Part shown: positions 2,921 through 57,206 of the stretch, one piece after another
Layout: the number at the start of each line of letters is the position of its first letter
Numbering within the stretch: position 1 is the first letter of the stretch
Assembly: GCF_003431975.1 (NCBI RefSeq)
Contig: NZ_CP027116.1
Span: 3,472,001-3,536,000, forward strand
DNA length: 64,000 nt
Source: Bacillus pumilus
GTDB lineage: Bacteria > Bacillota > Bacilli > Bacillales > Bacillaceae
Reading direction: 5' to 3'
Notes under the pieces: generated by a model
What the model saw: only the letters and a program-made list of their open reading frames with translations
Database searches by the model: none
What the model was told of the DNA's origin: nothing
Made by a program: the position numbers and the translations under genes

Positions 2921-4285
2921 TCACACCGTTTTTCCTTCGTCACTTGCGACGGCACGATTTCTCTTTTTTAAATCTTCTTCAATTTCTTCAAGACTCTTCC
3001 CTTTCGTTTCCGTCACCAAATATTTCACAAACAAGAAGGCGCCTATGCCGATGACCGCATAAATGAGGAAAAGATGACTGATGCCTATCGCGCTTAATAA
3101 AGCTGGGAATGTCAGCGAGATAATTAAATTCCCTGTATGGAGGAGGAAGGTAGAGACGCCTGTACCGATTCCCCGCACATGTACTGGGAACAGCTCAGGA
3201 AGCATGACCCAAACGACTGGACCCCAGCTGACAGCAAAAATGACGATGAAGAGCCCTAAACAAATAATGGTTGTCCACCCTGCAGCTGTTGATCCCTCAA
3301 AAAATCGATTGACCACGGAGAGGACAATTAAACTGAGGACCATTCCCGCGTTCCCAAATAGGAGTAGTGCTTTACGGCCTACACGGTCAATAATTTTGAT
3401 TGCCACAAACGTCATAACGACATTCACAGCGCCAATGCCGACGGTTCCTAAAATGGCGGCTGAGTTACCAAAGCCAACGCTTGTAAACGTTTTTGGCGCA
3501 TAGTAAATAATCGTATTGGTTCCGATAAACTGCTGTAAAAAGGCAAGACCGACACCAGCGATTAATGCTGGTCGCACCCACGGCTCAAATAATTCCTTAA
3601 AACCGCCTTTTTCTTCATTTTCTGCCTTTTGAATATCAGAAATTTCTTCTTCGACCTCTTGCTTACTCTTTCTAAGCTTAGACAATATCTCCTTCGCACG
3701 GTCTGCCTGTCCATGAACAAACAGCCAGCGCGGACTTTCTGGCATAAATAAAATCCCACATAATAAAAGCACGGAAGGAACAACTGCAATTCCAAGCATC
3801 AGGCGCCATGCCTCTGCATCAGCTAAAGCATAGTTCACAATATAGGCGAGAAGAATACCAAATGTGATCATGAGTTGGTTTAAAGAAGATAGTGCACCTC
3901 GTGATTCCTTTGGAGCAAGTTCAGATAAGTATAATGGAACAATCGTTGTCGAGCAGCCGACAGCAAGCCCTAGTACAATTCGGAATAAGACCATTACTTC
4001 TGTATTTGGAGCAAGGGCTGTACCAAATCCGCCGATAATAAACAAAATCGCTGCGGCAATAATGGCTTTTTTCCGCCCGAATTGGTCTGTCAGTTTTCCA
4101 GAAAGAGAGGAACCGAGCATCGCCCCAATTAAAATCGAGCTGACGACAAGTCCCTCTGTAAACGCATTTAACCCTAAATCCTCTTTCATAAATAAGATAG
4201 CGCCAGAAATAACACCTGTATCATATCCATATAAAGCGCCGCCAAGGGCGCCGAAGAAATAAAGCCATCCATTCCGATTTTTCAT
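2921..4285 (-). CDS. ywtG: MFS sugar porter YwtG
   Basis: A 12-helix major facilitator of the sugar porter family, expected to take up a monosaccharide with a cation. Visible family motifs are GYDTGVISGA in helix 1, GRKKAI between helices 2 and 3, PESPRWL after helix 6, QQFIGTNTIIYYAP in helix 7 and VTETKGKSLEEIE at the C-terminus. Two in-frame ATGs lie 6 bases apart; the second (4285) is preferred because AGAGGGG is then 8 bases upstream rather than 2. Length of 454 residues is normal. It is divergent from tagT, as ywtG is from ywtF in B. subtilis. The true substrate is unknown. Confidence 0.85.
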   Translation of the reverse strand: MKNRNGWLYFFGALGGALYGYDTGVISGAILFMKEDLGLNAFTEGLVVSSILIGAMLGSSLSGKLTDQFGRKKAIIAAAILFIIGGFGTALAPNTEVMVLFRIVLGLAVGCSTTIVPLYLSELAPKESRGALSSLNQLMITFGILLAYIVNYALADAEAWRLMLGIAVVPSVLLLCGILFMPESPRWLFVHGQADRAKEILSKLRKSKQEVEEEISDIQKAENEEKGGFKELFEPWVRPALIAGVGLAFLQQFIGTNTIIYYAPKTFTSVGFGNSAAILGTVGIGAVNVVMTFVAIKIIDRVGRKALLLFGNAGMVLSLIVLSVVNRFFEGSTAAGWTTIICLGLFIVIFAVSWGPVVWVMLPELFPVHVRGIGTGVSTFLLHTGNLIISLTFPALLSAIGISHLFLIYAVIGIGAFLFVKYLVTETKGKSLEEIEEDLKKRNRAVASDEGKTV

Positions 4286-4409
4286 GTTCATAACCCCTCT
4301 TTTGTTCTGTATGTACTGGATGTTTCTCTATGAAAAACCATTTTCCTCACTTCCTGTCTTTTCAAACATTTCGATGTTTTATGACAAATATATTTCATTT
4401 TCATATCAT

Positions 4410-4436
4410 TGAAACTTTTTATGATAAGGAAACGTC
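4410..4436 (+). promoter_or_regulatory. ECF-sigma (SigX/SigM-type) promoter for ywtF
   Basis: TGAAAC is followed after 17 bases by CGTC, the classical B. subtilis extracytoplasmic-function promoter pattern. It lies about 120 bases upstream of a wall-polymer gene, the kind of gene these sigma factors control. Confidence 0.6.
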
Positions 4437-4556
4437 AATTAAGCGTTAGTGAAAAAAATGTCGCACTATATCCCGTTTTAAGGTATATTTGTTTTAGTTT
4501 GTAAACAACAAGAAGGTCATCTTTACTATAAAAATCATAGCGAGGGTTTAAAATAT

Positions 4557-6757: not shown

Positions 6758-7981
6758 TTATTTTTTGATTCTAACAGCCGTCTCATACTTATCCTTCCAG
6801 TACGTACTTGTTTTCATATTGGTGATAACGACACCCTTTGATACGGTCACATGAATGACTTGATTTGATCCTGCATAAATCGCCGGCATTAATGACGTGC
6901 CACTAAAGAAAACGAGATCTCCTGGCTTCAGCTCCGAACGTTTCACAGTCGTACCTGCCTTGACTTGACCTGACGCATAGCGAGGCAGTTCAATGCCAAG
7001 TACTTTCCGATACACGTACTGTGTAAACCCTGCTGTGTCAAAGCCCTTTTCTGGATTCGTACCGCCTTTGACATAAGGAACTTCACCAATATACGTAGCG
7101 GCTTTTGAGACAATCGGGTCTTCTTTTGCTAATTTCAGCTCTGTTAATCGTTTCGCACCTGTCCATTTCTCACGCCAATACGACTCGGACAAATAAGAAA
7201 TCGTGACACTCTCCGAACGGCTCGCATGAATAAAGCGGCCGCCCCCAATATACATCCCTACATGAGAAATGCCTGGCTTATATGTGTTGCTAAAAAAGAC
7301 AAAATCCCCTGGACGTATATCCGCTAATGCCACTTTTTCTCCAACCATCCACTGCTGTTCAGCACTTCGAGGTAAATAAATCCCTAGTGATTTTTCAAAT
7401 ACATATTGTAAAAAGCCTGAACAATCAAACCCAACCTTTGGGTCCGCTGCACCAAATACATATGGAATCCCTACATATTTCATTGCATCTTTCACTAGGC
7501 GATCATCAGAAATTTCCTGCTTGCCAGGCAGTCGTTTGACTGCATAAAACCGGTTCGTCCAGTATTTACTTTTGCTGACATCTGTTTTCACCACCCCTTG
7601 ACTAAGCGTGATATGGATGACCTGATCGTCCCCAGCGTACAATGCAACATGTGTGGGGATATCCTTTTTTTCTTCAAGGCTGCGGAAATACACAAGGTCA
7701 CCGGGCTTGGCTTTGTCCCATGATACCTTTGCTCCAATCTGATACTGGTCGATTACCTTCCGCGGCAAATCAAATGCATCTGACGTCTTGTACACATATT
7801 GAATAAAGCCAGATGCATCAAAGCCTGTTTTTGGATCAGTTCCCCCTTTATGATAAGGCGTTCCAATCAGCTTTTCCGCTTTCTCCAAAGGAGACGCTGT
7901 TTGAGCAGATACTTCTGAATGAGACATGAACATCAAACCTACGAGCGCACACCCGCCAATCAACATTCCTTTCCATTTCAA
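6758..7981 (-). CDS. pgdS: Secreted gamma-DL-glutamyl hydrolase PgdS (three NlpC/P60 repeats)
   Basis: Extracellular hydrolase that cuts poly-gamma-glutamate between D- and L-residues. A signal peptide (MKWKGMLIGG to SEVSA, about 26 residues) precedes three NlpC/P60 repeats starting near residues 30, 160 and 290. Only the middle repeat has the catalytic motif DCSGF with its HVGMYIG and FIHAS partners; the first reads DASGF and the third DTAGF, so those look catalytically dead. The start is TTG at 7981, 8 bases after AAAGGAGGG. A SigD-type promoter lies just upstream. It follows the pgs operon on the same strand, as in B. subtilis. Length of 407 residues is close to the known 413. Confidence 0.9.
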   Translation of the reverse strand: MKWKGMLIGGCALVGLMFMSHSEVSAQTASPLEKAEKLIGTPYHKGGTDPKTGFDASGFIQYVYKTSDAFDLPRKVIDQYQIGAKVSWDKAKPGDLVYFRSLEEKKDIPTHVALYAGDDQVIHITLSQGVVKTDVSKSKYWTNRFYAVKRLPGKQEISDDRLVKDAMKYVGIPYVFGAADPKVGFDCSGFLQYVFEKSLGIYLPRSAEQQWMVGEKVALADIRPGDFVFFSNTYKPGISHVGMYIGGGRFIHASRSESVTISYLSESYWREKWTGAKRLTELKLAKEDPIVSKAATYIGEVPYVKGGTNPEKGFDTAGFTQYVYRKVLGIELPRYASGQVKAGTTVKRSELKPGDLVFFSGTSLMPAIYAGSNQVIHVTVSKGVVITNMKTSTYWKDKYETAVRIKK

Positions 7982-8006
7982 GATCTTTTCCCTCCTTTCT
8001 TCTTTA

Positions 8007-8032
8007 GTTTCGGCAAGACACCTTTCATTTTA
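8007..8032 (-). promoter_or_regulatory. SigD-type promoter of pgdS
   Basis: On the minus strand, TAAA is followed after 14 bases by GCCGAAAC, six of eight matches to the SigD -10 element. pgdS is SigD-dependent in B. subtilis, which supports the call. Confidence 0.6.
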
Positions 8033-8047
8033 CACCTTTTTTTCGAC

Positions 8048-9905: not shown

Positions 9906-11087
9906 CTAGCTGACAAGCTGCTTAATTTTGTATTCTTGAATTTTTTCGATTAACGGTTCAGCGGCACCATGAATATTGCCGACTCCATAAACCACTCGAT
10001 TATGAAGCTTTTTCTCAAGCATGTTCATAATTTCTTCTGTAGATTGATATTCAAGGTTGTGTAAGTGGTCAGCCGGAATTTTTCCATCCTCATATGCCTT
10101 TACAATTGGATCTGTTGTTTCACCAATCAAGACAAGGTCACTTGCTTCAATATAAGGAAGTACATCCTCCGCAAACTGGATCGTTCTATCTACACGATCC
10201 GCACGGCAGTTCATGATAATAATCGGTTCATCTGTTGGATATCCAATTTCTTTCACGCGCTTCCAAATGTTCAATGTAGATGATGCGTCGTTTGCCGCAA
10301 AACCATTTACAAAGTGTCCAGGTGTCTTCGCGTCCATTAATGGAAGAATTCTCATCGCTCCTGGATCAGGCGGCGCATTTAACATTCCTCTGAATGCCGT
10401 ATCTTCATCAATCCCTAATGCCTGCGCAACACCAAGTGCAAGTGAGGCATTGTCTGGGAAAACCATGTACTCAAATTTCCGTAAATACTCATCGGAAATC
10501 TTGGAATTATCTGCAACAATGACTTCTGTGTTGCGTTTTTTCGCAATCTCTTTAAAGAAATCCGTATATTCACTATCCGTAATAACCAAGTGTCCATTAT
10601 AAGGAATTGTCGCTGTAAAGGCTTCTGCTATTTCATCAAGTGTCGGCCCCATGACGTCCATATGATCTTCAAGAACGTTTACGATCACGCCAATATTTGC
10701 TTGAAGCAGCTCTTCCTGAAAGATAATTTGGTAATCTGGATTTACTGCCATACACTCACTGACGATGGCATTTGCTCCTCTTTCAACGGTTTCTCTCATA
10801 ACTTCCTTCTGCTCACCGATATTCGGTCCTTGCGGTTTCCTTTTAATCGGCTTCTCCTCTGGCGTATCCCAATAAATCATTCTTGCATCCGTTCCCGTTG
10901 TTTTTCCGACAGTTTTATAACCTGCCTCCATTAAGATACCGGTTGTCAATCTTGTGACGGTAGACTTTCCGCGAATACCATTAATATTGACGCGCACCGG
11001 CAGGGCATCGATATTTTTCTGATGACGCTTCTTTTCAATAAAGCCAATCCCTAACATGATGACACAGGCTATAACGATTAACCACAT
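9906..11087 (-). CDS. pgsB: Poly-gamma-glutamate synthase ATPase PgsB
   Basis: ATP-dependent amide ligase that joins glutamate residues through the gamma-carboxyl group at the membrane. It has an N-terminal hydrophobic helix (residues 2-16), then a Mur-ligase-like ATPase domain with the P-loop NGIRGKSTVTR near residue 37 and later ECMAVNPDYQ and VLEDHMDVMG. Length is 393 residues, the family norm. The start fits the known N-terminus (MWLIVIAC); AAAGGAG is rather far at 13 bases. It is the first gene of pgsBCAE and is preceded by a long regulatory region. Confidence 0.93.
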   Translation of the reverse strand: MWLIVIACVIMLGIGFIEKKRHQKNIDALPVRVNINGIRGKSTVTRLTTGILMEAGYKTVGKTTGTDARMIYWDTPEEKPIKRKPQGPNIGEQKEVMRETVERGANAIVSECMAVNPDYQIIFQEELLQANIGVIVNVLEDHMDVMGPTLDEIAEAFTATIPYNGHLVITDSEYTDFFKEIAKKRNTEVIVADNSKISDEYLRKFEYMVFPDNASLALGVAQALGIDEDTAFRGMLNAPPDPGAMRILPLMDAKTPGHFVNGFAANDASSTLNIWKRVKEIGYPTDEPIIIMNCRADRVDRTIQFAEDVLPYIEASDLVLIGETTDPIVKAYEDGKIPADHLHNLEYQSTEEIMNMLEKKLHNRVVYGVGNIHGAAEPLIEKIQEYKIKQLVS

Positions 11088-52286: not shown

Positions 52287-52316
52287 GCGTCTCTCCAACA
52301 AAGAGACGCCCTTTTT
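52287..52316 (+). terminator. Terminator of ywnH
   Basis: GCGTCTCT / AGAGACGC stem followed by TTTTT; the T-run reaches the stop of the converging gene at 52315. Confidence 0.85.
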
Positions 52317-52845
52317 ATGAAGCATGTAGCAACTGTTCAAACTGTTTCGCATTTTGAAGAGATTTCCTTTGCAGGATGATGCCATGTTCATCCATCAGAA
52401 TCGCTTGCGGAACAACAGTTAACCCATACAGCTCCATAATTTGCGAAGAGCGAACATACACAGCTTGATCAGGGAGCAACTGGACAAGGGCTGCATCATC
52501 TGCTTGTTCATCTCCATTGATAATGATGAACTGTGGATCACCGCTAGACATTTGATAATGTATATCAGACAAAATGCTTTTGCATGTCATGCAAGTAGAG
52601 TTCACAAATAATAGCATCACGGCTCTTCCGTTTTGCAAATATTCCTTTAAAATGATCTTCTCCCCTAAATGCGTATAGCTTCGAAATAGCGGCGCTGAAT
52701 CACCAACATCAGCTTCCTTTAATTCAATTCCATCAAGGGTTTTGATTTTATTCATAAATTTTCCGATAAAGCGGGCAAGCAAAAACACCACAGCCAGCTG
52801 AGCAATGACAATGAATAACACAATAATCAGTAGAATATCTGTCAT
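52315..52845 (-). CDS. Membrane-anchored thioredoxin-like protein (MauD/TlpA type)
   Basis: About 176 residues: an N-terminal membrane helix (ILLIIVLFIVIAQLAVVFLLARFI) and an extracellular redoxin domain with the active site NSTCMTCKSI near residue 85 and the cis-proline loop LTVVPQAILMD. It starts 5 bases after the MauE-like gene and is the last gene of an exporter-MauE-thioredoxin operon. MauD and MauE act together in making the disulfides of methylamine dehydrogenase; a similar role on the cysteine-rich peptide encoded at 56291 is inferred. It could also reduce rather than form disulfides. Confidence 0.8.
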   Translation of the reverse strand: MTDILLIIVLFIVIAQLAVVFLLARFIGKFMNKIKTLDGIELKEADVGDSAPLFRSYTHLGEKIILKEYLQNGRAVMLLFVNSTCMTCKSILSDIHYQMSSGDPQFIIINGDEQADDAALVQLLPDQAVYVRSSQIMELYGLTVVPQAILMDEHGIILQRKSLQNAKQFEQLLHAS

Positions 52846-52850
52846 TTCAC

Positions 52851-53399
52851 TTAGTCTCCTTCTATAAATGATTCAAATTGATTGATCCATTTTCTTTTGA
52901 ACATCAAGATGTCTTTTCCCACCGCTATAATGAAACAGGCAGCCACTGCTATCAGAAAACAAATGATGTGAAGTGGCCACGGAATTGTTTCTACAAAGGG
53001 ATGCACATAAAACAGCCCAATCACAAGAGCCAACATCGACACATTCCGAATCACAATTCCCCAGTGAAGCCGGTCATTTTCCAGCAAACCTCCACACCCG
53101 CATGAAATATCACGATGACCTCTCAATAAATTGAAGGTGACCGCTCCAGTATACATACATAAAAGTGCTGTAAGACCAATCGCAGGTACAAGAGACATAT
53201 TCGATACGAACAAAAGGCCTGTACAAGCCAATTCAACAGTCAAAAACAAATAAAACATAGGTCCCGTGAGCGAAGGAGGCAGCAATTGATAAGCATTCAT
53301 CTGCTGCTTATGTGCCGTCTGTTTTCTCACTTTATCAAGCCATGCACCAGCAAAGATGATTCCTAAAAAATAGACACCTATAAAATATAAGACACTCAC
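52851..53399 (-). CDS. MauE-like membrane redox protein
   Basis: A 182-residue membrane protein with four or five helices and the cysteine pair in DISCGCGGLLEND, the form typical of MauE/DoxX-related redox proteins, which pass electrons between the membrane and thioredoxin-like partners. The start is GTG at 53399, 10 bases after AAAAGGAG, which lies inside the end of the exporter gene. The gap to the next gene is 5 bases. It has no B. subtilis counterpart in this region. Confidence 0.78.
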   Translation of the reverse strand: MSVLYFIGVYFLGIIFAGAWLDKVRKQTAHKQQMNAYQLLPPSLTGPMFYLFLTVELACTGLLFVSNMSLVPAIGLTALLCMYTGAVTFNLLRGHRDISCGCGGLLENDRLHWGIVIRNVSMLALVIGLFYVHPFVETIPWPLHIICFLIAVAACFIIAVGKDILMFKRKWINQFESFIEGD

Positions 53400-53400
53400 C

Positions 53401-55200
53401 TTACGCCATCTCCTTTTGTTGAAATAGTTGAGATTGTGCCTCGTAAAGCCTTTTGTACTCTCCGTTTAGCACCATCAGCTCTTCATGGTTACCCTCTTCA
53501 ACGAAAGCACCGTCTTTCATCACAATAATGCGGTCTGCTAAGCGGGCAGCACCCATGCGATGTGTGATAAATAAGACGCCTTGATCCTGCGTATGATTGA
53601 ATAGCTTTCGTATGAGTGAAATCTCTGATAACGGATCCAGAGCAGAAGTAGGTTCATCTAAAATGATAAAGTCACTTTCTCTAAAAAAGGTTCTAGCCAT
53701 CGCAAGCTTTTGCCATTGTCCGCCAGACAGTTCATGACCTTCTTCGAAAAACCGGCCAAGCTGCGCATCATATGTTTCTTCCATTTGATGAATTCTTTTC
53801 TCTATACCTGCCTGCCGCGCAGCTGAGATCATGCGCTCCTCATTATCTATTTCGTCGATACGGCCAAATCCAATGTTTTCTTTCACAGTGAATTCGTACT
53901 TCATAAAATCTTGAAAAAGAACAGCCATTCTCGCATGATATGATTTTTTATCAATGGTAGAAATAGACTCGCCATTGACCTTTTGCATATTCGGTTGATC
54001 TGGATCATATAAGCCGGTCAAACATTTGATCAAGGTCGTCTTACCCGATCCGTTATCCCCCACCAATGCAATACGTTCACCTTGATTGATATGAAGTTGT
54101 ATATGCTCAATGGCAGGCGTTTTCATATTTGGATAAGTAAAAGAGAGGTTTTCTAGTGTAATGGACTGAATAGACTCAATCCTCAGAAGCGATGCCCCTT
54201 CCTCTGATTGATCATGAGTTTCTTCTTCTCTCTTTTGAAAAGTTCTCATTTCATCAATATAGAGACTCGTTTCATATAAACTAGAACATTCTCTCGTTAA
54301 GTCCTGAAAACCACTTTGAATATTTTGTACAGCTTGCAGCACAGCGACAAACGTTCCCGCTACTAATTTCTTTTGAAAGATAAGAAAGACAATAAAAAGA
54401 CCGCAGCACACATAAGCAAATGTCATAAGCAATCCACCCGCCATCTCCCAGCGAACTTGCTGTTTAAGTAATTTATATTTTTCGTCTGCACTTTTTACAT
54501 AATGACCTCTCCATTTTTGAAGAAGATAATTACCAATGCCATATAAACGAATTTCCTTCAATGAATCTCGCTGTGCAACAAGGTCAGACACATACATTTC
54601 TCTTCGGTCGTTAGCCGTTAACATGCGGTTTAATTGATACCGTGCGCCTCCAAAGAAGAGTTCAATCCATAAGACAGGCAAGGTAAATAAGATCAGAATA
54701 ACAGCCAAACCCCAGTGGATACCGACCATATAAATGAGAAGTGATACAACAGTAATCAATGCGCTCATGATTGTAAAAATACTTCTAACCATACTTAGAA
54801 CATGCTGATGACTGTTCATCACACGTTGACTTTCATTATAAAAAGATGGGTGTTCAAATGTAATATATGGCAGTCTGATCGCCTTTTGAAGCAATTCACC
54901 CTTCAAATGCAAACCAATCAAATTCGTCGCTTTCTGCTGACTAAGCTGAAGAATGAATTGAAGCCCATAACCTAAAACCACAATGGCCATTTGCAATCCA
55001 AATAACCATAAAACCTTTTGAATATCTCCAGAAGAATTCATAAATAAAATAATTTCATTAATCAATGTTTGAATAATCCAGACACTAGCGAGTGGCATAA
55101 AACCAACGATCACTTGGATGAATAGAGTTAACAGAAGATAAGATCGACTTCTATTCCACGTATAAAAAATTGCATACAAACAATGATTCACTGTACTCAT
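53401..55200 (-). CDS. ABC exporter, NisT/SpaT-like, without peptidase domain
   Basis: A 599-residue fused exporter: about six helices in the first 320 residues and an ATPase with Walker A GDNGSGKTT near residue 382, signature LSGGQWQKLAMARTF near 489 and Walker [14 protein letters not shown]. Length and the GGQWQK form resemble lantibiotic exporters NisT and SpaT. There is no N-terminal C39 peptidase, so any leader removal must happen elsewhere. The start at 55200 follows AAGGTGG by 8 bases. It heads an operon with the MauE-like and thioredoxin-like genes and is divergent from a second thioredoxin-like gene. Confidence 0.85.
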   Translation of the reverse strand: MSTVNHCLYAIFYTWNRSRSYLLLTLFIQVIVGFMPLASVWIIQTLINEIILFMNSSGDIQKVLWLFGLQMAIVVLGYGLQFILQLSQQKATNLIGLHLKGELLQKAIRLPYITFEHPSFYNESQRVMNSHQHVLSMVRSIFTIMSALITVVSLLIYMVGIHWGLAVILILFTLPVLWIELFFGGARYQLNRMLTANDRREMYVSDLVAQRDSLKEIRLYGIGNYLLQKWRGHYVKSADEKYKLLKQQVRWEMAGGLLMTFAYVCCGLFIVFLIFQKKLVAGTFVAVLQAVQNIQSGFQDLTRECSSLYETSLYIDEMRTFQKREEETHDQSEEGASLLRIESIQSITLENLSFTYPNMKTPAIEHIQLHINQGERIALVGDNGSGKTTLIKCLTGLYDPDQPNMQKVNGESISTIDKKSYHARMAVLFQDFMKYEFTVKENIGFGRIDEIDNEERMISAARQAGIEKRIHQMEETYDAQLGRFFEEGHELSGGQWQKLAMARTFFRESDFIILDEPTSALDPLSEISLIRKLFNHTQDQGVLFITHRMGAARLADRIIVMKDGAFVEEGNHEELMVLNGEYKRLYEAQSQLFQQKEMA

Positions 55201-55224
55201 CAAACGTTCCACCTTACACCATTT

Positions 55225-55261
55225 AGTATAATTGACATATTTTTGATATTTATATTATGAT
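55225..55261. promoter_or_regulatory. Divergent promoter region of the exporter system
   Basis: On the plus strand TTGACA (55232) and TATGAT (55256) are 18 bases apart, driving the thioredoxin-like gene. On the minus strand a TATACT -10 lies at 55225-55230 for the exporter, without a good -35. The two sites nearly overlap, so the genes are probably co-regulated. Confidence 0.5.
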
Positions 55262-55298
55262 AGCTCTGCGTAACATCACTCTGAGAGGACGATATACG

Positions 55299-55808
55299 AT
55301 GAATTCAATCTTACTTTTACAGGTCACTCTTATTCTTTGCAGCCTTTTATTGACGATAGGAATCATCATCTATTTAAAACGCCAAATGGAATTGATCGTC
55401 TTACCGATTCAGCACGCCGGACAAAAACTTGTTCATCCGCTTCTTGAAAAACCATCACCTATTCGAATGAATGATTTGCTCGAAGCCAGTCACAAGCAAC
55501 AGCTGCTTATATTCACAGACACAGCATGTCCACACTGCATCCCATCATTTGAACAATTTCTAGAAACGAAAAAGCAGCGTCAATTAGACATTTCTTTTAG
55601 TGTTTTGCTGAAGAATGGACAAGAAAAGGATCGAGAATTATATCGAGATAACCAAACCAACATACGAATGATCTCAGTGGACGAACAAATGACAAACGTA
55701 TTCCAGATTGAAGAGTTTCCGTATTATATCATGGTAGAAGAAGATGAAACAATCTCATATGCAGCCCCTTTTCCGGATGGACTTTATTCTAGAATTCCTG
55801 CAAAATAA
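55299..55808 (+). CDS. Second membrane-anchored thioredoxin-like protein
   Basis: About 169 residues: an N-terminal helix (ILLLQVTLILCSLLLTIGIIIYL) and a thioredoxin-like domain with the active site TDTACPHCIPSF near residue 80 and the cis-proline in EEFPYYIMVEE. The CPHC motif is that of the oxidising DsbA, which favours disulfide formation. The start at 55299 follows GAGAGGAC; a longer frame of 14 codons is unsupported. It is divergent from the exporter, and a strong terminator follows. Confidence 0.78.
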   Translation: MNSILLLQVTLILCSLLLTIGIIIYLKRQMELIVLPIQHAGQKLVHPLLEKPSPIRMNDLLEASHKQQLLIFTDTACPHCIPSFEQFLETKKQRQLDISFSVLLKNGQEKDRELYRDNQTNIRMISVDEQMTNVFQIEEFPYYIMVEEDETISYAAPFPDGLYSRIPAK

Positions 55809-55814
55809 AGATAA

Positions 55815-55854
55815 ATGAGGCATGTGAACAATCTAGCACATGCCTCATTTTTTT
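55815..55854. terminator. Bidirectional terminator at the exporter locus
   Basis: ATGAGGCATGTG / CACATGCCTCAT, a perfect 12-bp stem with T-rich flanks on both sides. Confidence 0.88.
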
Positions 55855-56257
55855 ATTGGTTTGATTCTGGCTCAACATCCTTATCCTTTTCCATTGCAGC
55901 GATTTCACTCGCTTCACTTGAAGCTGGCGCTTGTTCCTCAGCTTGTTCAAACTCACTGCGAGCCTCAGTTGAAATGTCTACTTGGTCACCATGCTGATTC
56001 ATAATAGTAGACGAAGAAGACTCCTCTTTTTGAACCTCTTTCTCTAATTCCTTTAATTTAGACACATGAAGCTCTAAATCTTTTCCTTGCTGAACTAAAG
56101 TCAGTTGTTGAAATAGTGCCTTTCTCTCTTCTGGAGAATGGTCGCCTTGAACAATTTTCGCAGCTTGGTTTAAAAAAGAATTGGATGTTTGACTCGCTTG
56201 ACGACTGTTTGACGTCTGCATAGCATTTGTTAAAAATGAAATTGAAGATATGCTCAT
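55853..56257 (-). CDS. Unknown charged protein, 134 residues
   Basis: A hydrophilic protein without membrane segments. The N-terminus MSISSISFLTNAMQ is followed by serine/glutamine-rich and helical, glutamate-rich parts (KLKELEKEVQKEE), the phrase GDQVDISTEARSEFEQ, and an acidic tail. The DxVxIS-EA phrase is also seen in FlgM and some other flagellar proteins, but nothing else supports that. AGGATGTG precedes the ATG. It starts 34 bases after the cysteine-rich peptide gene on the same strand and probably shares its transcript, so a link to peptide production or immunity is possible. Confidence 0.6.
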   Translation of the reverse strand: MSISSISFLTNAMQTSNSRQASQTSNSFLNQAAKIVQGDHSPEERKALFQQLTLVQQGKDLELHVSKLKELEKEVQKEESSSSTIMNQHGDQVDISTEARSEFEQAEEQAPASSEASEIAAMEKDKDVEPESNQ

Positions 56258-56290
56258 GCGTTCACATCCTATTAAATAAAATCTTTCAAT

Positions 56291-56485
56291 TTAGCAGCCG
56301 CATCTAACACGTTCTACGGCAGTACAAATCTCACCTGTATCACGATCCACGTAGTAACGGAAAGTTCCAACACCTTGAAGGAAACATGTTGGTGCAGATT
56401 TGCATGAAGTGACTAATTTTTGCAAAATACATCTTGAAGCTGCAGGTTGAACATTGGTCATTTTGTTTAAGAAACGATCTAACAT
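56291..56485 (-). CDS. Six-cysteine peptide, candidate bacteriocin precursor
   Basis: A 64-residue peptide starting MLDRFLNKMTNVQPAASR, with cysteines at 19, 28, 34, 54, 62 and 64 and ending VRCGC. It has no Sec signal and no double-glycine leader; the first 18 residues lack cysteine and could be a leader. The start at 56485 follows AAGGTGG by 7 bases. The six cysteines and basic core recall defensin-like bacteriocins such as laterosporulin, but I see no clear sequence match. A NisT-like exporter and MauD/MauE-like redox proteins lie nearby on the same strand, which is why I read it as a disulfide-bonded secreted peptide. Confidence 0.65.
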   Translation of the reverse strand: MLDRFLNKMTNVQPAASRCILQKLVTSCKSAPTCFLQGVGTFRYYVDRDTGEICTAVERVRCGC

Positions 56486-56511
56486 ATGAATTCCACCTTC
56501 CAATTTTTATG

Positions 56512-56541
56512 TTAATACAACACAATAATAACCAATTACAA
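56512..56541 (-). promoter_or_regulatory. Possible promoter of the six-cysteine peptide gene
   Basis: TTGTAA and TATTAA are 18 bases apart on the minus strand, about 27 bases upstream of the ATG. The surrounding DNA up to 56700 is very AT-rich and has no other gene. Confidence 0.4.
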
Positions 56542-56714
56542 GACAACTAACAACATATTTTGATAATTTTACTAATTATTTTTAACTACTAGTCTTATTT
56601 ATGACATCATTTTTCGTTAAAATTTATAGTAAATGTTACTTTTTTCTTATTCAGAAATCATTTATTTATCCATAAATAGTAAACCGAAGATTGGAATATT
56701 TTTTATTGTTCTAC

Positions 56715-56763
56715 ATTCACTCTTCCTAAAGTACTACTGACTCAAGTATGATAAAGAGTGAAT
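56715..56763. repeat. 10-bp perfect inverted repeat upstream of 56784
   Basis: ATTCACTCTT (56715-56724) and AAGAGTGAAT (56754-56763) are exact inverted copies 29 bases apart. They flank the likely promoter of the next gene and end just before its ribosome site. Confidence 0.6.
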
Positions 56764-56783
56764 ACATAAAGGAGTGAACACCA

Positions 56784-57206
56784 TTGCAACAAACTGAGAA
56801 AATCATTCAATCTCTTCATTCGATCACAAAGTGGGGAAAAGTTGGTAGTATCTTTCTCTATATTTCAGGCGGTCTAGCTATTCTGATTGGTTTTTGGCTT
56901 GTTCTCCCTGCTGCCCTTGGCGTCTTCCTCATTATGATGGGAGTCCACGTACAAAAATCTGTAAACGCAGCTGAACAATTAATTCAAGCTCCCGATACTT
57001 CATATGAAGAGTTATTAGAACAATATGCTAAGATGATGAAAATGCAGACACTGTTTGCCATATCAACTATTGTCACAGCCATTCTCTCATTTATCGCCAT
57101 TATTTTGATGCTGATATTGGGCGGCCTAGCCTTTCTGCAAGAAATTCCTAGCGATGTCCAGCAATACGAAGATGAATACGAACAAGAGCTTGATGACTTT
57201 TATTAA
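56784..57206 (+). CDS. Small membrane protein (DUF5362-like)
   Basis: A 140-residue protein with two pairs of hydrophobic helices (about residues 18-50 and 85-115) and an acidic C-terminus ending YEQELDDFY. The start is TTG, 7 bases after AAGGAGTG. It resembles small uncharacterised Bacillus membrane proteins. It is divergent from the six-cysteine peptide gene; a self-protection role in that system is a guess from position. An inverted repeat precedes it and a terminator follows. Confidence 0.65.
   Translation: MQQTEKIIQSLHSITKWGKVGSIFLYISGGLAILIGFWLVLPAALGVFLIMMGVHVQKSVNAAEQLIQAPDTSYEELLEQYAKMMKMQTLFAISTIVTAILSFIAIILMLILGGLAFLQEIPSDVQQYEDEYEQELDDFY

What the first reader, a model, noticed from the sequence alone, without database searches (positions are those of the whole stretch)
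52315..56485. Candidate disulfide-rich bacteriocin system with MauD/MauE-like redox partners
Seen: a 64-residue peptide with six cysteines and no Sec signal; a NisT/SpaT-like exporter lacking a C39 peptidase; a MauE-like membrane protein; two membrane-anchored thioredoxin-like proteins (CMTC and CPHC); and an unknown charged protein after the peptide. Exporter, MauE and CMTC genes are nearly contiguous on one strand. Known: MauD and MauE are needed for the many disulfides of methylamine dehydrogenase, and sublancin clusters carry their own thiol oxidoreductases. Inference: this cluster exports and oxidises the peptide. No peptide-modifying enzyme is visible, so it would be an unmodified disulfide class. 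I know of no described system with this set.
Basis: partly seen in the sequence, partly recalled or inferred. Interest (0 to 1): 0.88.

Follow-up and report, generated by a model that had tools for sequence, protein, structure and literature searches.

The report
Disulfide-stapled peptide export and folding cassette
This Bacillus pumilus-group chromosome carries a co-inherited gene block with a conserved six-cysteine peptide beside an ABC exporter and MauE- and thioredoxin-type redox proteins; the block is predicted to export the peptide and lock it with disulfide bonds, probably as a bacteriocin, and a similar gene set lies beside laterosporulin-family bacteriocin genes and beside unnamed small cysteine-rich genes in other Bacillales.

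Summary
In detail: a 64-aa six-Cys peptide, an ABC exporter without C39, a Pfam MauE protein and two anchored CxxC thioredoxin-like proteins lie at 52315-56485. The block is one unit. The same 11 of 44 genus genomes hold peptide, MauE, TrxB and the 134-aa protein. Five other pumilus-clade genomes lack it (three clean gaps, two decayed remnants). Peptide Ka/Ks is 0.08. Similar sets occur elsewhere: of 27 exporter-MauE loci examined, 25 have a small ORF with at least 5 Cys within 2.5 kb (background 4 in 225 kb, 0 in 87 kb). In 12 of these 25 loci the peptide shares a signature (C..C..C..D...G..C..C.C) without a Pfam or NCBIfam match; the other 13 differ. Three of three laterosporulin-family loci carry exporter, CxxC thioredoxin-like protein and MauE, with exporters of the same clade. 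So this works like a laterosporulin-type system with another peptide family. Export, three disulfides and killing are inferred. In class I lasso clusters a comparable DoxX/Trx pair proved dispensable for disulfides, and loss of SviF affected export, so the redox genes' exact step is open.

The parts
56291..56485 (-). six-cysteine peptide, 64 aa (C19, C28, C34, C54, C62, C64), predicted exported product
   Evidence: conserved in 11 of 44 genus genomes (a twelfth match, G038, is a chance hit); Ka/Ks 0.081; signature shared with cassette peptides of other Bacillales
55853..56257 (-). 134-aa charged protein just downstream of the peptide on the same strand; candidate immunity or accessory protein (inferred)
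   Evidence: same 11 of 44 genomes as the peptide; no Pfam match above cut-off; absent at the empty sites
55299..55808 (+). TrxB: membrane-anchored thioredoxin-like protein, CPHC
   Evidence: (weak matches only); start moved from 55257 to 55299; same 11 of 44 genomes
53401..55212 (-). ABC exporter (fused permease/ATPase, 603 aa), no C39 peptidase domain found
   Evidence: one clade with laterosporulin-locus exporters
52851..53399 (-). MauE membrane protein with a CGCGG motif
   Evidence: PF07291 80.5 bits, E 1.7e-22; CxC motif; 11 of 44 genomes at 75% identity or more
52315..52845 (-). TrxA: membrane-anchored MauD/TlpA-like thioredoxin, CMTC
   Evidence: (MauD model 52.5 bits, under its 188.6 cut-off)
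55232..55261 (+). promoter-like site for TrxB (TTGACA-18-TATGAT, 11 of 12)
   Evidence: consensus match; the total number of sites in the region is at the chance level
55814..55854 (.). inverted repeat plus T-run between TrxB and the 134-aa gene, likely terminator
   Evidence: read directly (11-bp stem, 10-nt loop); not listed by the scan, whose loop limit is 8
52287..52309 (+). terminator-like site at the distal edge of the block
   Evidence: the clean empty-site junctions lie at 52294-52336

Best explanation
The block at 52315-56485 is a co-inherited peptide cassette in which the six-cysteine peptide is predicted to be exported by the neighbouring ABC transporter and likely oxidised to three disulfides outside the membrane by the MauE and thioredoxin-like proteins, probably yielding a laterosporulin-type bacteriocin. 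Shown: the genes, their joint presence and absence, purifying selection on the peptide, and recurrence of exporter + MauE + Trx beside Cys-rich small ORFs in other Bacillales, on plasmids and at laterosporulin-family loci. Inferred: (1) the exporter recognises the peptide without a cleaved double-glycine leader, since no C39 domain was found and some family members have only five residues before the first Cys; (2) the MauE CxC pair passes electrons from TrxA/TrxB to the membrane; (3) TrxA and TrxB oxidise and proofread the peptide; (4) the folded peptide kills or inhibits competing bacteria; (5) the exporter and/or the 134-aa protein protects the producer.
For: Same 11 of 44 genomes for peptide, MauE, TrxB and the 134-aa protein; five clade members lack the block between GNAT and DUF5362, two of them with decayed remnants. 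Of 27 exporter-MauE loci, 25 have a nearby small ORF with at least 5 Cys, against 4 in 224,667 bp and 0 in 86,704 bp of control. A peptide model gave a borderline hit (E 7.2e-4) in G138, not used to build it; it is a six-Cys peptide beside a 605-aa exporter and a CSAC TrxB-like gene. Laterosporulin-family loci: 3 of 3 carry exporter, CxxC Trx-like and MauE genes; in L083 MauE is over the Pfam cut-off. Exporters of 21 cassettes and 3 laterosporulin-family loci form one clade (100/100) apart from nine other exporters of this genome and two of lasso-like loci. Each MauE printed has a CxC and each Trx-like protein a CxxC (L070 was not in that run). Laterosporulin is an antimicrobial peptide whose exporter has no protease domain; a later paper cites three disulfides in its structure.
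Against: No expression, mass or activity data. The laterosporulin query has no match in G000, and the predicted fold of the window peptide matched nothing significantly. Only 12 of the 25 cassette peptides share the window's signature. Trx number varies: two Trx-like hits in 15 of 27 loci, one in 11, none in L066; the second one in L059 is distant. The peptide is nearly invariant within the clade, and no classical immunity gene is evident. In class I lasso clusters a delta-sviF mutant still made the disulfide peptide but lost it from the supernatant, and mslE/mslF knock-outs still produced theirs at lower yield. This genome also has a general DsbB-family protein elsewhere. Laterosporulin activity was reported unaffected by DTT.
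Confidence: 0.64

Rival explanations
1. Same cassette, but MauE/TrxA/TrxB mainly support export or quality control (reduction or isomerisation before or during transport); the disulfides form spontaneously or through the general DsbB-family oxidase.
For: In sviceucin the Trx-like SviF was dispensable for disulfides but needed for the peptide to reach the supernatant; a DsbB-family protein exists elsewhere in this genome.
Against: MauE with CxC and at least one CxxC protein accompany Cys-rich small ORFs in the cassettes (26 of 27 loci have a Trx-like hit; motifs), which fits a redox role on the peptide; in the lasso case the DoxX/Trx homologue knock-outs lowered yield.
Confidence: 0.17
2. The peptide is a secreted signal, metal-binding or surface-acting peptide with a housekeeping role in this clade, not a bacteriocin.
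For: Low Ka/Ks (0.081), 91-97% identity across the clade, and no obvious immunity gene.
Against: Patchy absence in 5 of 16 clade members, plasmid-borne cassettes with two paralogous peptides, strong divergence between genera, and kinship of the exporter to that of a proven bacteriocin family.
Confidence: 0.15
3. The exporter-MauE-Trx genes are a general thiol module and the peptide is an unrelated neighbour.
For: Peptide and 134-aa gene are separated from the exporter operon by the oppositely transcribed TrxB gene and a likely terminator. Seven of 25 fetched MauE loci have no exporter within 1.5 kb and no such small ORF.
Against: Joint presence and absence in the clade; enrichment of Cys-rich small ORFs at other cassettes; in L056, L057 and L060 the peptide gene lies directly between TrxB and the exporter.
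Confidence: 0.03

Closest known systems
Laterosporulin / laterosporulin10 (Brevibacillus class IId defensin-like bacteriocins)
   Same: Six-Cys peptide of about 50 aa, exporter without protease domain, Trx-like CxxC protein and MauE in the locus; exporters in one clade.
   Different: No match of the laterosporulin query in G000; the window peptide has an 18-residue stretch before its first Cys and a D..TG..C..C.C ending; two membrane-anchored Trx and a CGCGG MauE here, versus a 144-aa Trx-like protein and a CSCFG MauE there.
SviE/SviF-type DoxX + thioredoxin pair of class I lasso clusters (sviceucin, siamycin/MS-271)
   Same: A DoxX-family protein plus a CxxC thioredoxin proposed for disulfides of a ribosomal peptide.
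   Different: No lasso maturation enzymes among the block's genes by Pfam.
MauD/MauE of methylamine utilisation
   Same: MauE matches PF07291 above cut-off; TrxA matches the MauD model weakly.
   Different: MauD matches are far under the equivalog cut-off (52.5 and 20.5 against 188.6 bits); the context is peptide export. The rest of the mau cluster was not searched for.
Sublancin (SunA/SunT/BdbA/SunS/BdbB)
   Same: Cys-containing peptide with dedicated exporter and thiol oxidoreductases (gene set recalled; the oxidoreductase requirement is cited in the review).
   Different: No glycosyltransferase in the block and no C39 domain found in the exporter.
Actifensin (Actinomyces defensin-like bacteriocin)
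   Same: Three-disulfide peptide with ABC transporter genes.
   Different: Cys spacing of the window peptide breaks the pattern C-X5-12-C-X3-C-X9-10-C-X4-5-C-X-C; the words MauE, thioredoxin and oxidoreductase do not occur in that paper's main text.

Membership tests
Laterosporulin-type bacteriocin system | small six-Cys peptide gene in the locus | tested here: met
Laterosporulin-type bacteriocin system | ABC exporter without C39 domain, of the laterosporulin exporter lineage | tested here: met
   (no other bacteriocin exporters, such as NisT, were in the tree)
Laterosporulin-type bacteriocin system | MauE and CxxC Trx-like protein in the locus | tested here: met
Laterosporulin-type bacteriocin system | peptide homologous to laterosporulin by sequence | tested here: not met
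   no match in G000 at E<=0.001; hits in 3 of 398 genomes, one genus
Laterosporulin-type bacteriocin system | defensin-like fold | tested here: inconclusive
   AF2 mean pLDDT 76.4 for the best of five models (53.9-76.4), 14 rows, three beta strands; no significant Foldseek or VIA match
Laterosporulin-type bacteriocin system | leaderless: only Met removed | not testable with these tools
   needs mass spectrometry
Laterosporulin-type bacteriocin system | three disulfides and antimicrobial activity | not testable with these tools
   needs purified peptide
Double-glycine, C39-processed bacteriocin | C39 peptidase on the exporter | tested here: not met
   (25 of 28 Pfam matches shown, none C39; 603 aa)
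Sublancin/glycocin | glycosyltransferase in the cluster | tested here: not met
   (Pfam scan of seven ORFs, 52315-57206)
Class I lasso peptide | lasso B/C maturation enzymes in the cluster | tested here: not met
   same seven ORFs
MauD of methylamine dehydrogenase | NCBIfam TIGR02661 equivalog cut-off | tested here: not met
   52.5 and 20.5 bits against 188.6
MauE (Pfam PF07291) | curated gathering score | tested here: met
   80.5 bits against 27
Actifensin-type C6 defensin | C-X5-12-C-X3-C-X9-10-C-X4-5-C-X-C | tested here: not met
   spacing 8-5-19-7-1; pattern

The most novel reading that the evidence does not exclude
A widespread class of disulfide-stapled bacteriocins of Bacillales, chromosomal and plasmid-borne, is defined not by the peptide but by a dedicated exporter-MauE-thioredoxin machine that couples export to disulfide formation. 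Laterosporulin is one outlying member, and the window belongs to a new peptide family (C..C..C..D...G..C..C.C) with a second redox subtype (CGCGG MauE, membrane-anchored Trx) for which Pfam and NCBIfam hold no peptide model.
Probability: 0.5. Interest if true: 0.8.

Novelty: new variant of a known kind. Interest (0 to 1): 0.68.

Why it matters
If true, a searchable machine signature (fused exporter + MauE CxC + Trx) finds disulfide bacteriocins whose tiny, divergent genes escape peptide-based mining, and links laterosporulin to a larger family. It also gives simple Bacillus strains, with natural empty-site relatives as controls, for testing whether MauE-type proteins oxidise exported peptides. 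That role is called speculative in the decRiPPter paper (passages), and the lasso knock-outs summarised argue against a strict need.

Tried and rejected

The >=5-Cys rule was set after seeing the lists, so the enrichment is descriptive. G138 is the only hit outside the sequences used for the peptide model and their close relatives; its E-value is borderline (7.2e-4) and its contig is 4,142 bp, so MauE cannot be judged there. Both genome scans scored a capped number of candidates per genome (10, 16), so counts are lower bounds. Dropped before the cassette count: 15 weak MauE matches of 44 (E 9.6e-9 or worse) were not fetched. Seven of 25 fetched loci had no exporter within 1.5 kb of MauE (L058, L063, L072, L074, L075, L078, L079); L075 and L079 lie near contig ends. 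The two misses among 27 are L059 (a 4-Cys small ORF) and L066 (lasso-like precursors). Two of the 29 near ORFs (L070 8796-8942, L083 5829-6032) look spurious to me, and one of the four far ORFs is a paralogue (L087 9048-9221). L069, L070 and L071 are close relatives. The exporter tree left out L070, L088 and L117 and holds no NisT-type outgroup. MauE with bacteriocin (20 of 113 papers listed) returned listings I judged mostly name noise.
Full report
Observation. The peptide (56291-56485, minus strand) has 64 residues and cysteines at 19, 28, 34, 54, 62 and 64. The exporter has an ABC_tran match, a weak ABC_membrane match and no C39 among the matches shown; MauE scores 80.5 bits against a cut-off of 27. 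The two thioredoxin-like proteins carry CMTC and CPHC, each after one N-terminal hydrophobic segment, and MauE carries CGCGG. The peptide has no Pfam or NCBIfam match and no PDB relative by sequence.

One unit. In 44 genomes of the genus, the peptide (12 matches, one of them, G038, a chance hit), MauE at 75% identity or more (12 matches, the twelfth, G036, at 26%), TrxB and the 134-aa protein are found in the same 11 genomes. The order is the same in ten loci compared with the window. A flanking GTPase gene marks 15 genomes of the clade at 94% identity or more, the best match of the others being at 74% or less. G019 has no such match, but its locus (L017, the same contig by length) is otherwise syntenic, which makes 16; four further genomes without a match (G006, G014, G029, G038) were not placed. 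Five of the 16 lack the block: three with clean junctions between the GNAT gene and DUF5362 (window positions 52294-52336 to 56655-56710) and two with decayed pieces of TrxA, one of them with a short piece of the exporter too. The remnants point to loss of the unit in at least those two. Mean Ka/Ks over 11 sequences is 0.081 for the peptide, 0.064 for the exporter, 0.156 for MauE, 0.115 for TrxA, 0.170 for TrxB and 0.186 for the 134-aa protein.

The same machine elsewhere. PF07291 matched 42 of 397 Bacillales genomes (44 matches). I fetched the 25 matches with E below 1e-14 outside the clade, and also hold G036, three laterosporulin-family loci and four plasmid loci of eight plasmid records matched. 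Of these 33 loci plus the window, 27 have an exporter of at least 550 aa within 1.5 kb of MauE, and 25 of the 27 have an ORF of 35-80 aa with at least 5 Cys and a Shine-Dalgarno-like site within 2.5 kb. The distal parts of the same sequences gave 4 in 224,667 bp and eight other loci 0 in 86,704 bp. In L056, L057 and L060 the order is TrxB, peptide, exporter, MauE, TrxA on one strand. A Trx-like protein was found in 26 of the 27 (two in 15, one in 11).

Peptide families. In 12 of the 25 loci (window, L056, L057, L060, L061, L062, L064, L065, L067, L073, L087, L089) the peptides align with invariant C19, C28, D47, G51, C54, C62 and C64 and nearly invariant C34. The peptides of the other 13 loci are Cys-rich but of other sequence types. 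Ten peptides scanned gave no convincing Pfam or NCBIfam match. A search of 5.8 billion proteins with a 12-row profile gave eight proteins at E<=0.1, called hypothetical where a name is given. A model of 16 peptides hit 14 of 397 genomes. Thirteen also have MauE, but nine of these supplied rows to the model and the other four are close relatives of rows. The fourteenth, G138, is outside that set, with a borderline E of 7.2e-4; its six-Cys peptide lies beside a 605-aa exporter, with a CSAC TrxB-like gene on the opposite strand as in the window.

Laterosporulin. Using a published laterosporulin-family sequence (Table 5 of PMC6510442, passages seen), 3 of 398 Bacilli genomes matched, at 59-71% identity. 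The L083 peptide differs in one residue from one published as laterosporulin (PMC12503217, passages). All three loci carry peptide, a 161-176 aa hypothetical protein, exporter, a 144-aa CxxC protein and MauE; in L083 MauE scores 75.6 bits. The original paper (PMC3293901; passages and the whole Discussion seen) lists a hypothetical protein, an ABC transporter and a dehydrogenase beside the gene; that this 'dehydrogenase' is the MauD-like gene is my inference. It also notes that the exporter has no protease domain and suggests that only Met is removed. The exporter tree puts 21 cassette and 3 laterosporulin-family exporters on one side of a 100/100 branch, apart from nine other exporters of this genome and two of lasso-like loci. 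It has no NisT-type outgroup, so kinship is shown only relative to those; the laterosporulin branch is long and its place inside the clade is open.

Two redox subtypes. Of 26 cassette MauE proteins printed (L070 not run), 17 carry CGCGG (window included), L064 CGCSG, L045 CSCGG, and seven CxCFG: the three laterosporulin-family loci, L066, L068, L076 and L077. In the laterosporulin-family loci, L068 and L077 the Trx-like proteins are short (140-151 aa); in most of the others they have a predicted N-terminal membrane segment.

Mechanism. Predicted export without double-glycine processing follows from the missing C39 domain and from family members with only five residues before the first Cys. Oxidation by MauE/Trx is inferred from the CxC and CxxC motifs and the Cys-rich peptides. 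It is not settled: for class I lasso peptides a review (PMC9266682, its section on disulfides read in full) reports that a delta-sviF strain still made sviceucin but only in mycelia, and that mslE/mslF knock-outs gave lower yield. Candidate RiPP families with MauE/MauD were noted by decRiPPter (PMC7794033, passages). The best AlphaFold model of the window peptide has an all-beta core with pLDDT near 90, but the five models range from 53.9 to 76.4 on average, and no significant structural neighbour was found, so a defensin fold is neither shown nor excluded.

Is it in print? Searches on MauE + bacteriocin (20 of 113 listed), laterosporulin + gene cluster (21, 20 of 41), leaderless + disulfide + thioredoxin (36, 3 of 3), sviceucin + disulfide (37, 10 of 19), pumicin (38, none), laterosporulin + oxidoreductase (66, 6 of 6), MauE/MauD + bacteriocin/disulfide (68, 4 of 4), B. 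pumilus + cysteine-rich + genome mining (76, 1 of 1), defensin-like + thiol-disulfide oxidoreductase (89, none) and B. altitudinis/safensis bacteriocins (90, 10 of 50) showed no description of this cassette in the titles, abstract starts and passages I saw. Passages of two genome-mining papers on species of this group (PMC7617318, PMC10888436) name other bacteriocins, and the words laterosporulin and thioredoxin do not occur in their main texts; whether those strains carry the block was not tested. Most subscription papers are not covered.

Noticed in passing
L058 (MauE 6944-7471, Trx 7456-8040, precursor-like ORF 10585-10719) and L066 (ORFs 3961-4143, 4306-4497): MauE sits near small Cys-containing ORFs that look to me like lasso precursors (in L058 also a Trx and a B2-like ORF), perhaps disulfide lasso clusters in Bacillales.
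   Followed up: no
L087 3256-3423 and 9048-9221; L089 3021-3188 and 3294-3461: Exiguobacterium plasmids carry two paralogous six-Cys peptides each, with an ABC permease/ATPase pair nearby that could be immunity.
   Followed up: partly
L088 6673-9621: In one Priestia plasmid cassette a Tn3-family transposase gene follows MauE and no TrxA was found, whereas the similar plasmid locus L086 has TrxA there.
   Followed up: no
window 55853-56485: Mean Ks of the peptide (0.289) and the 134-aa gene (0.351) is lower than that of the seven other genes measured (0.475-0.625), as if silent sites there are also constrained or the segment is exchanged between strains.
   Followed up: no
L093 9089-9347, L094 8859-9289: Decayed remnants of the block at the empty site in two clade members, evidence of loss rather than absence from the start.
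   Followed up: partly
L017 (G019): The TrxB match in the most diverged carrier was reported with one TAG inside; it may lie upstream of the true start and was not examined.
   Followed up: no
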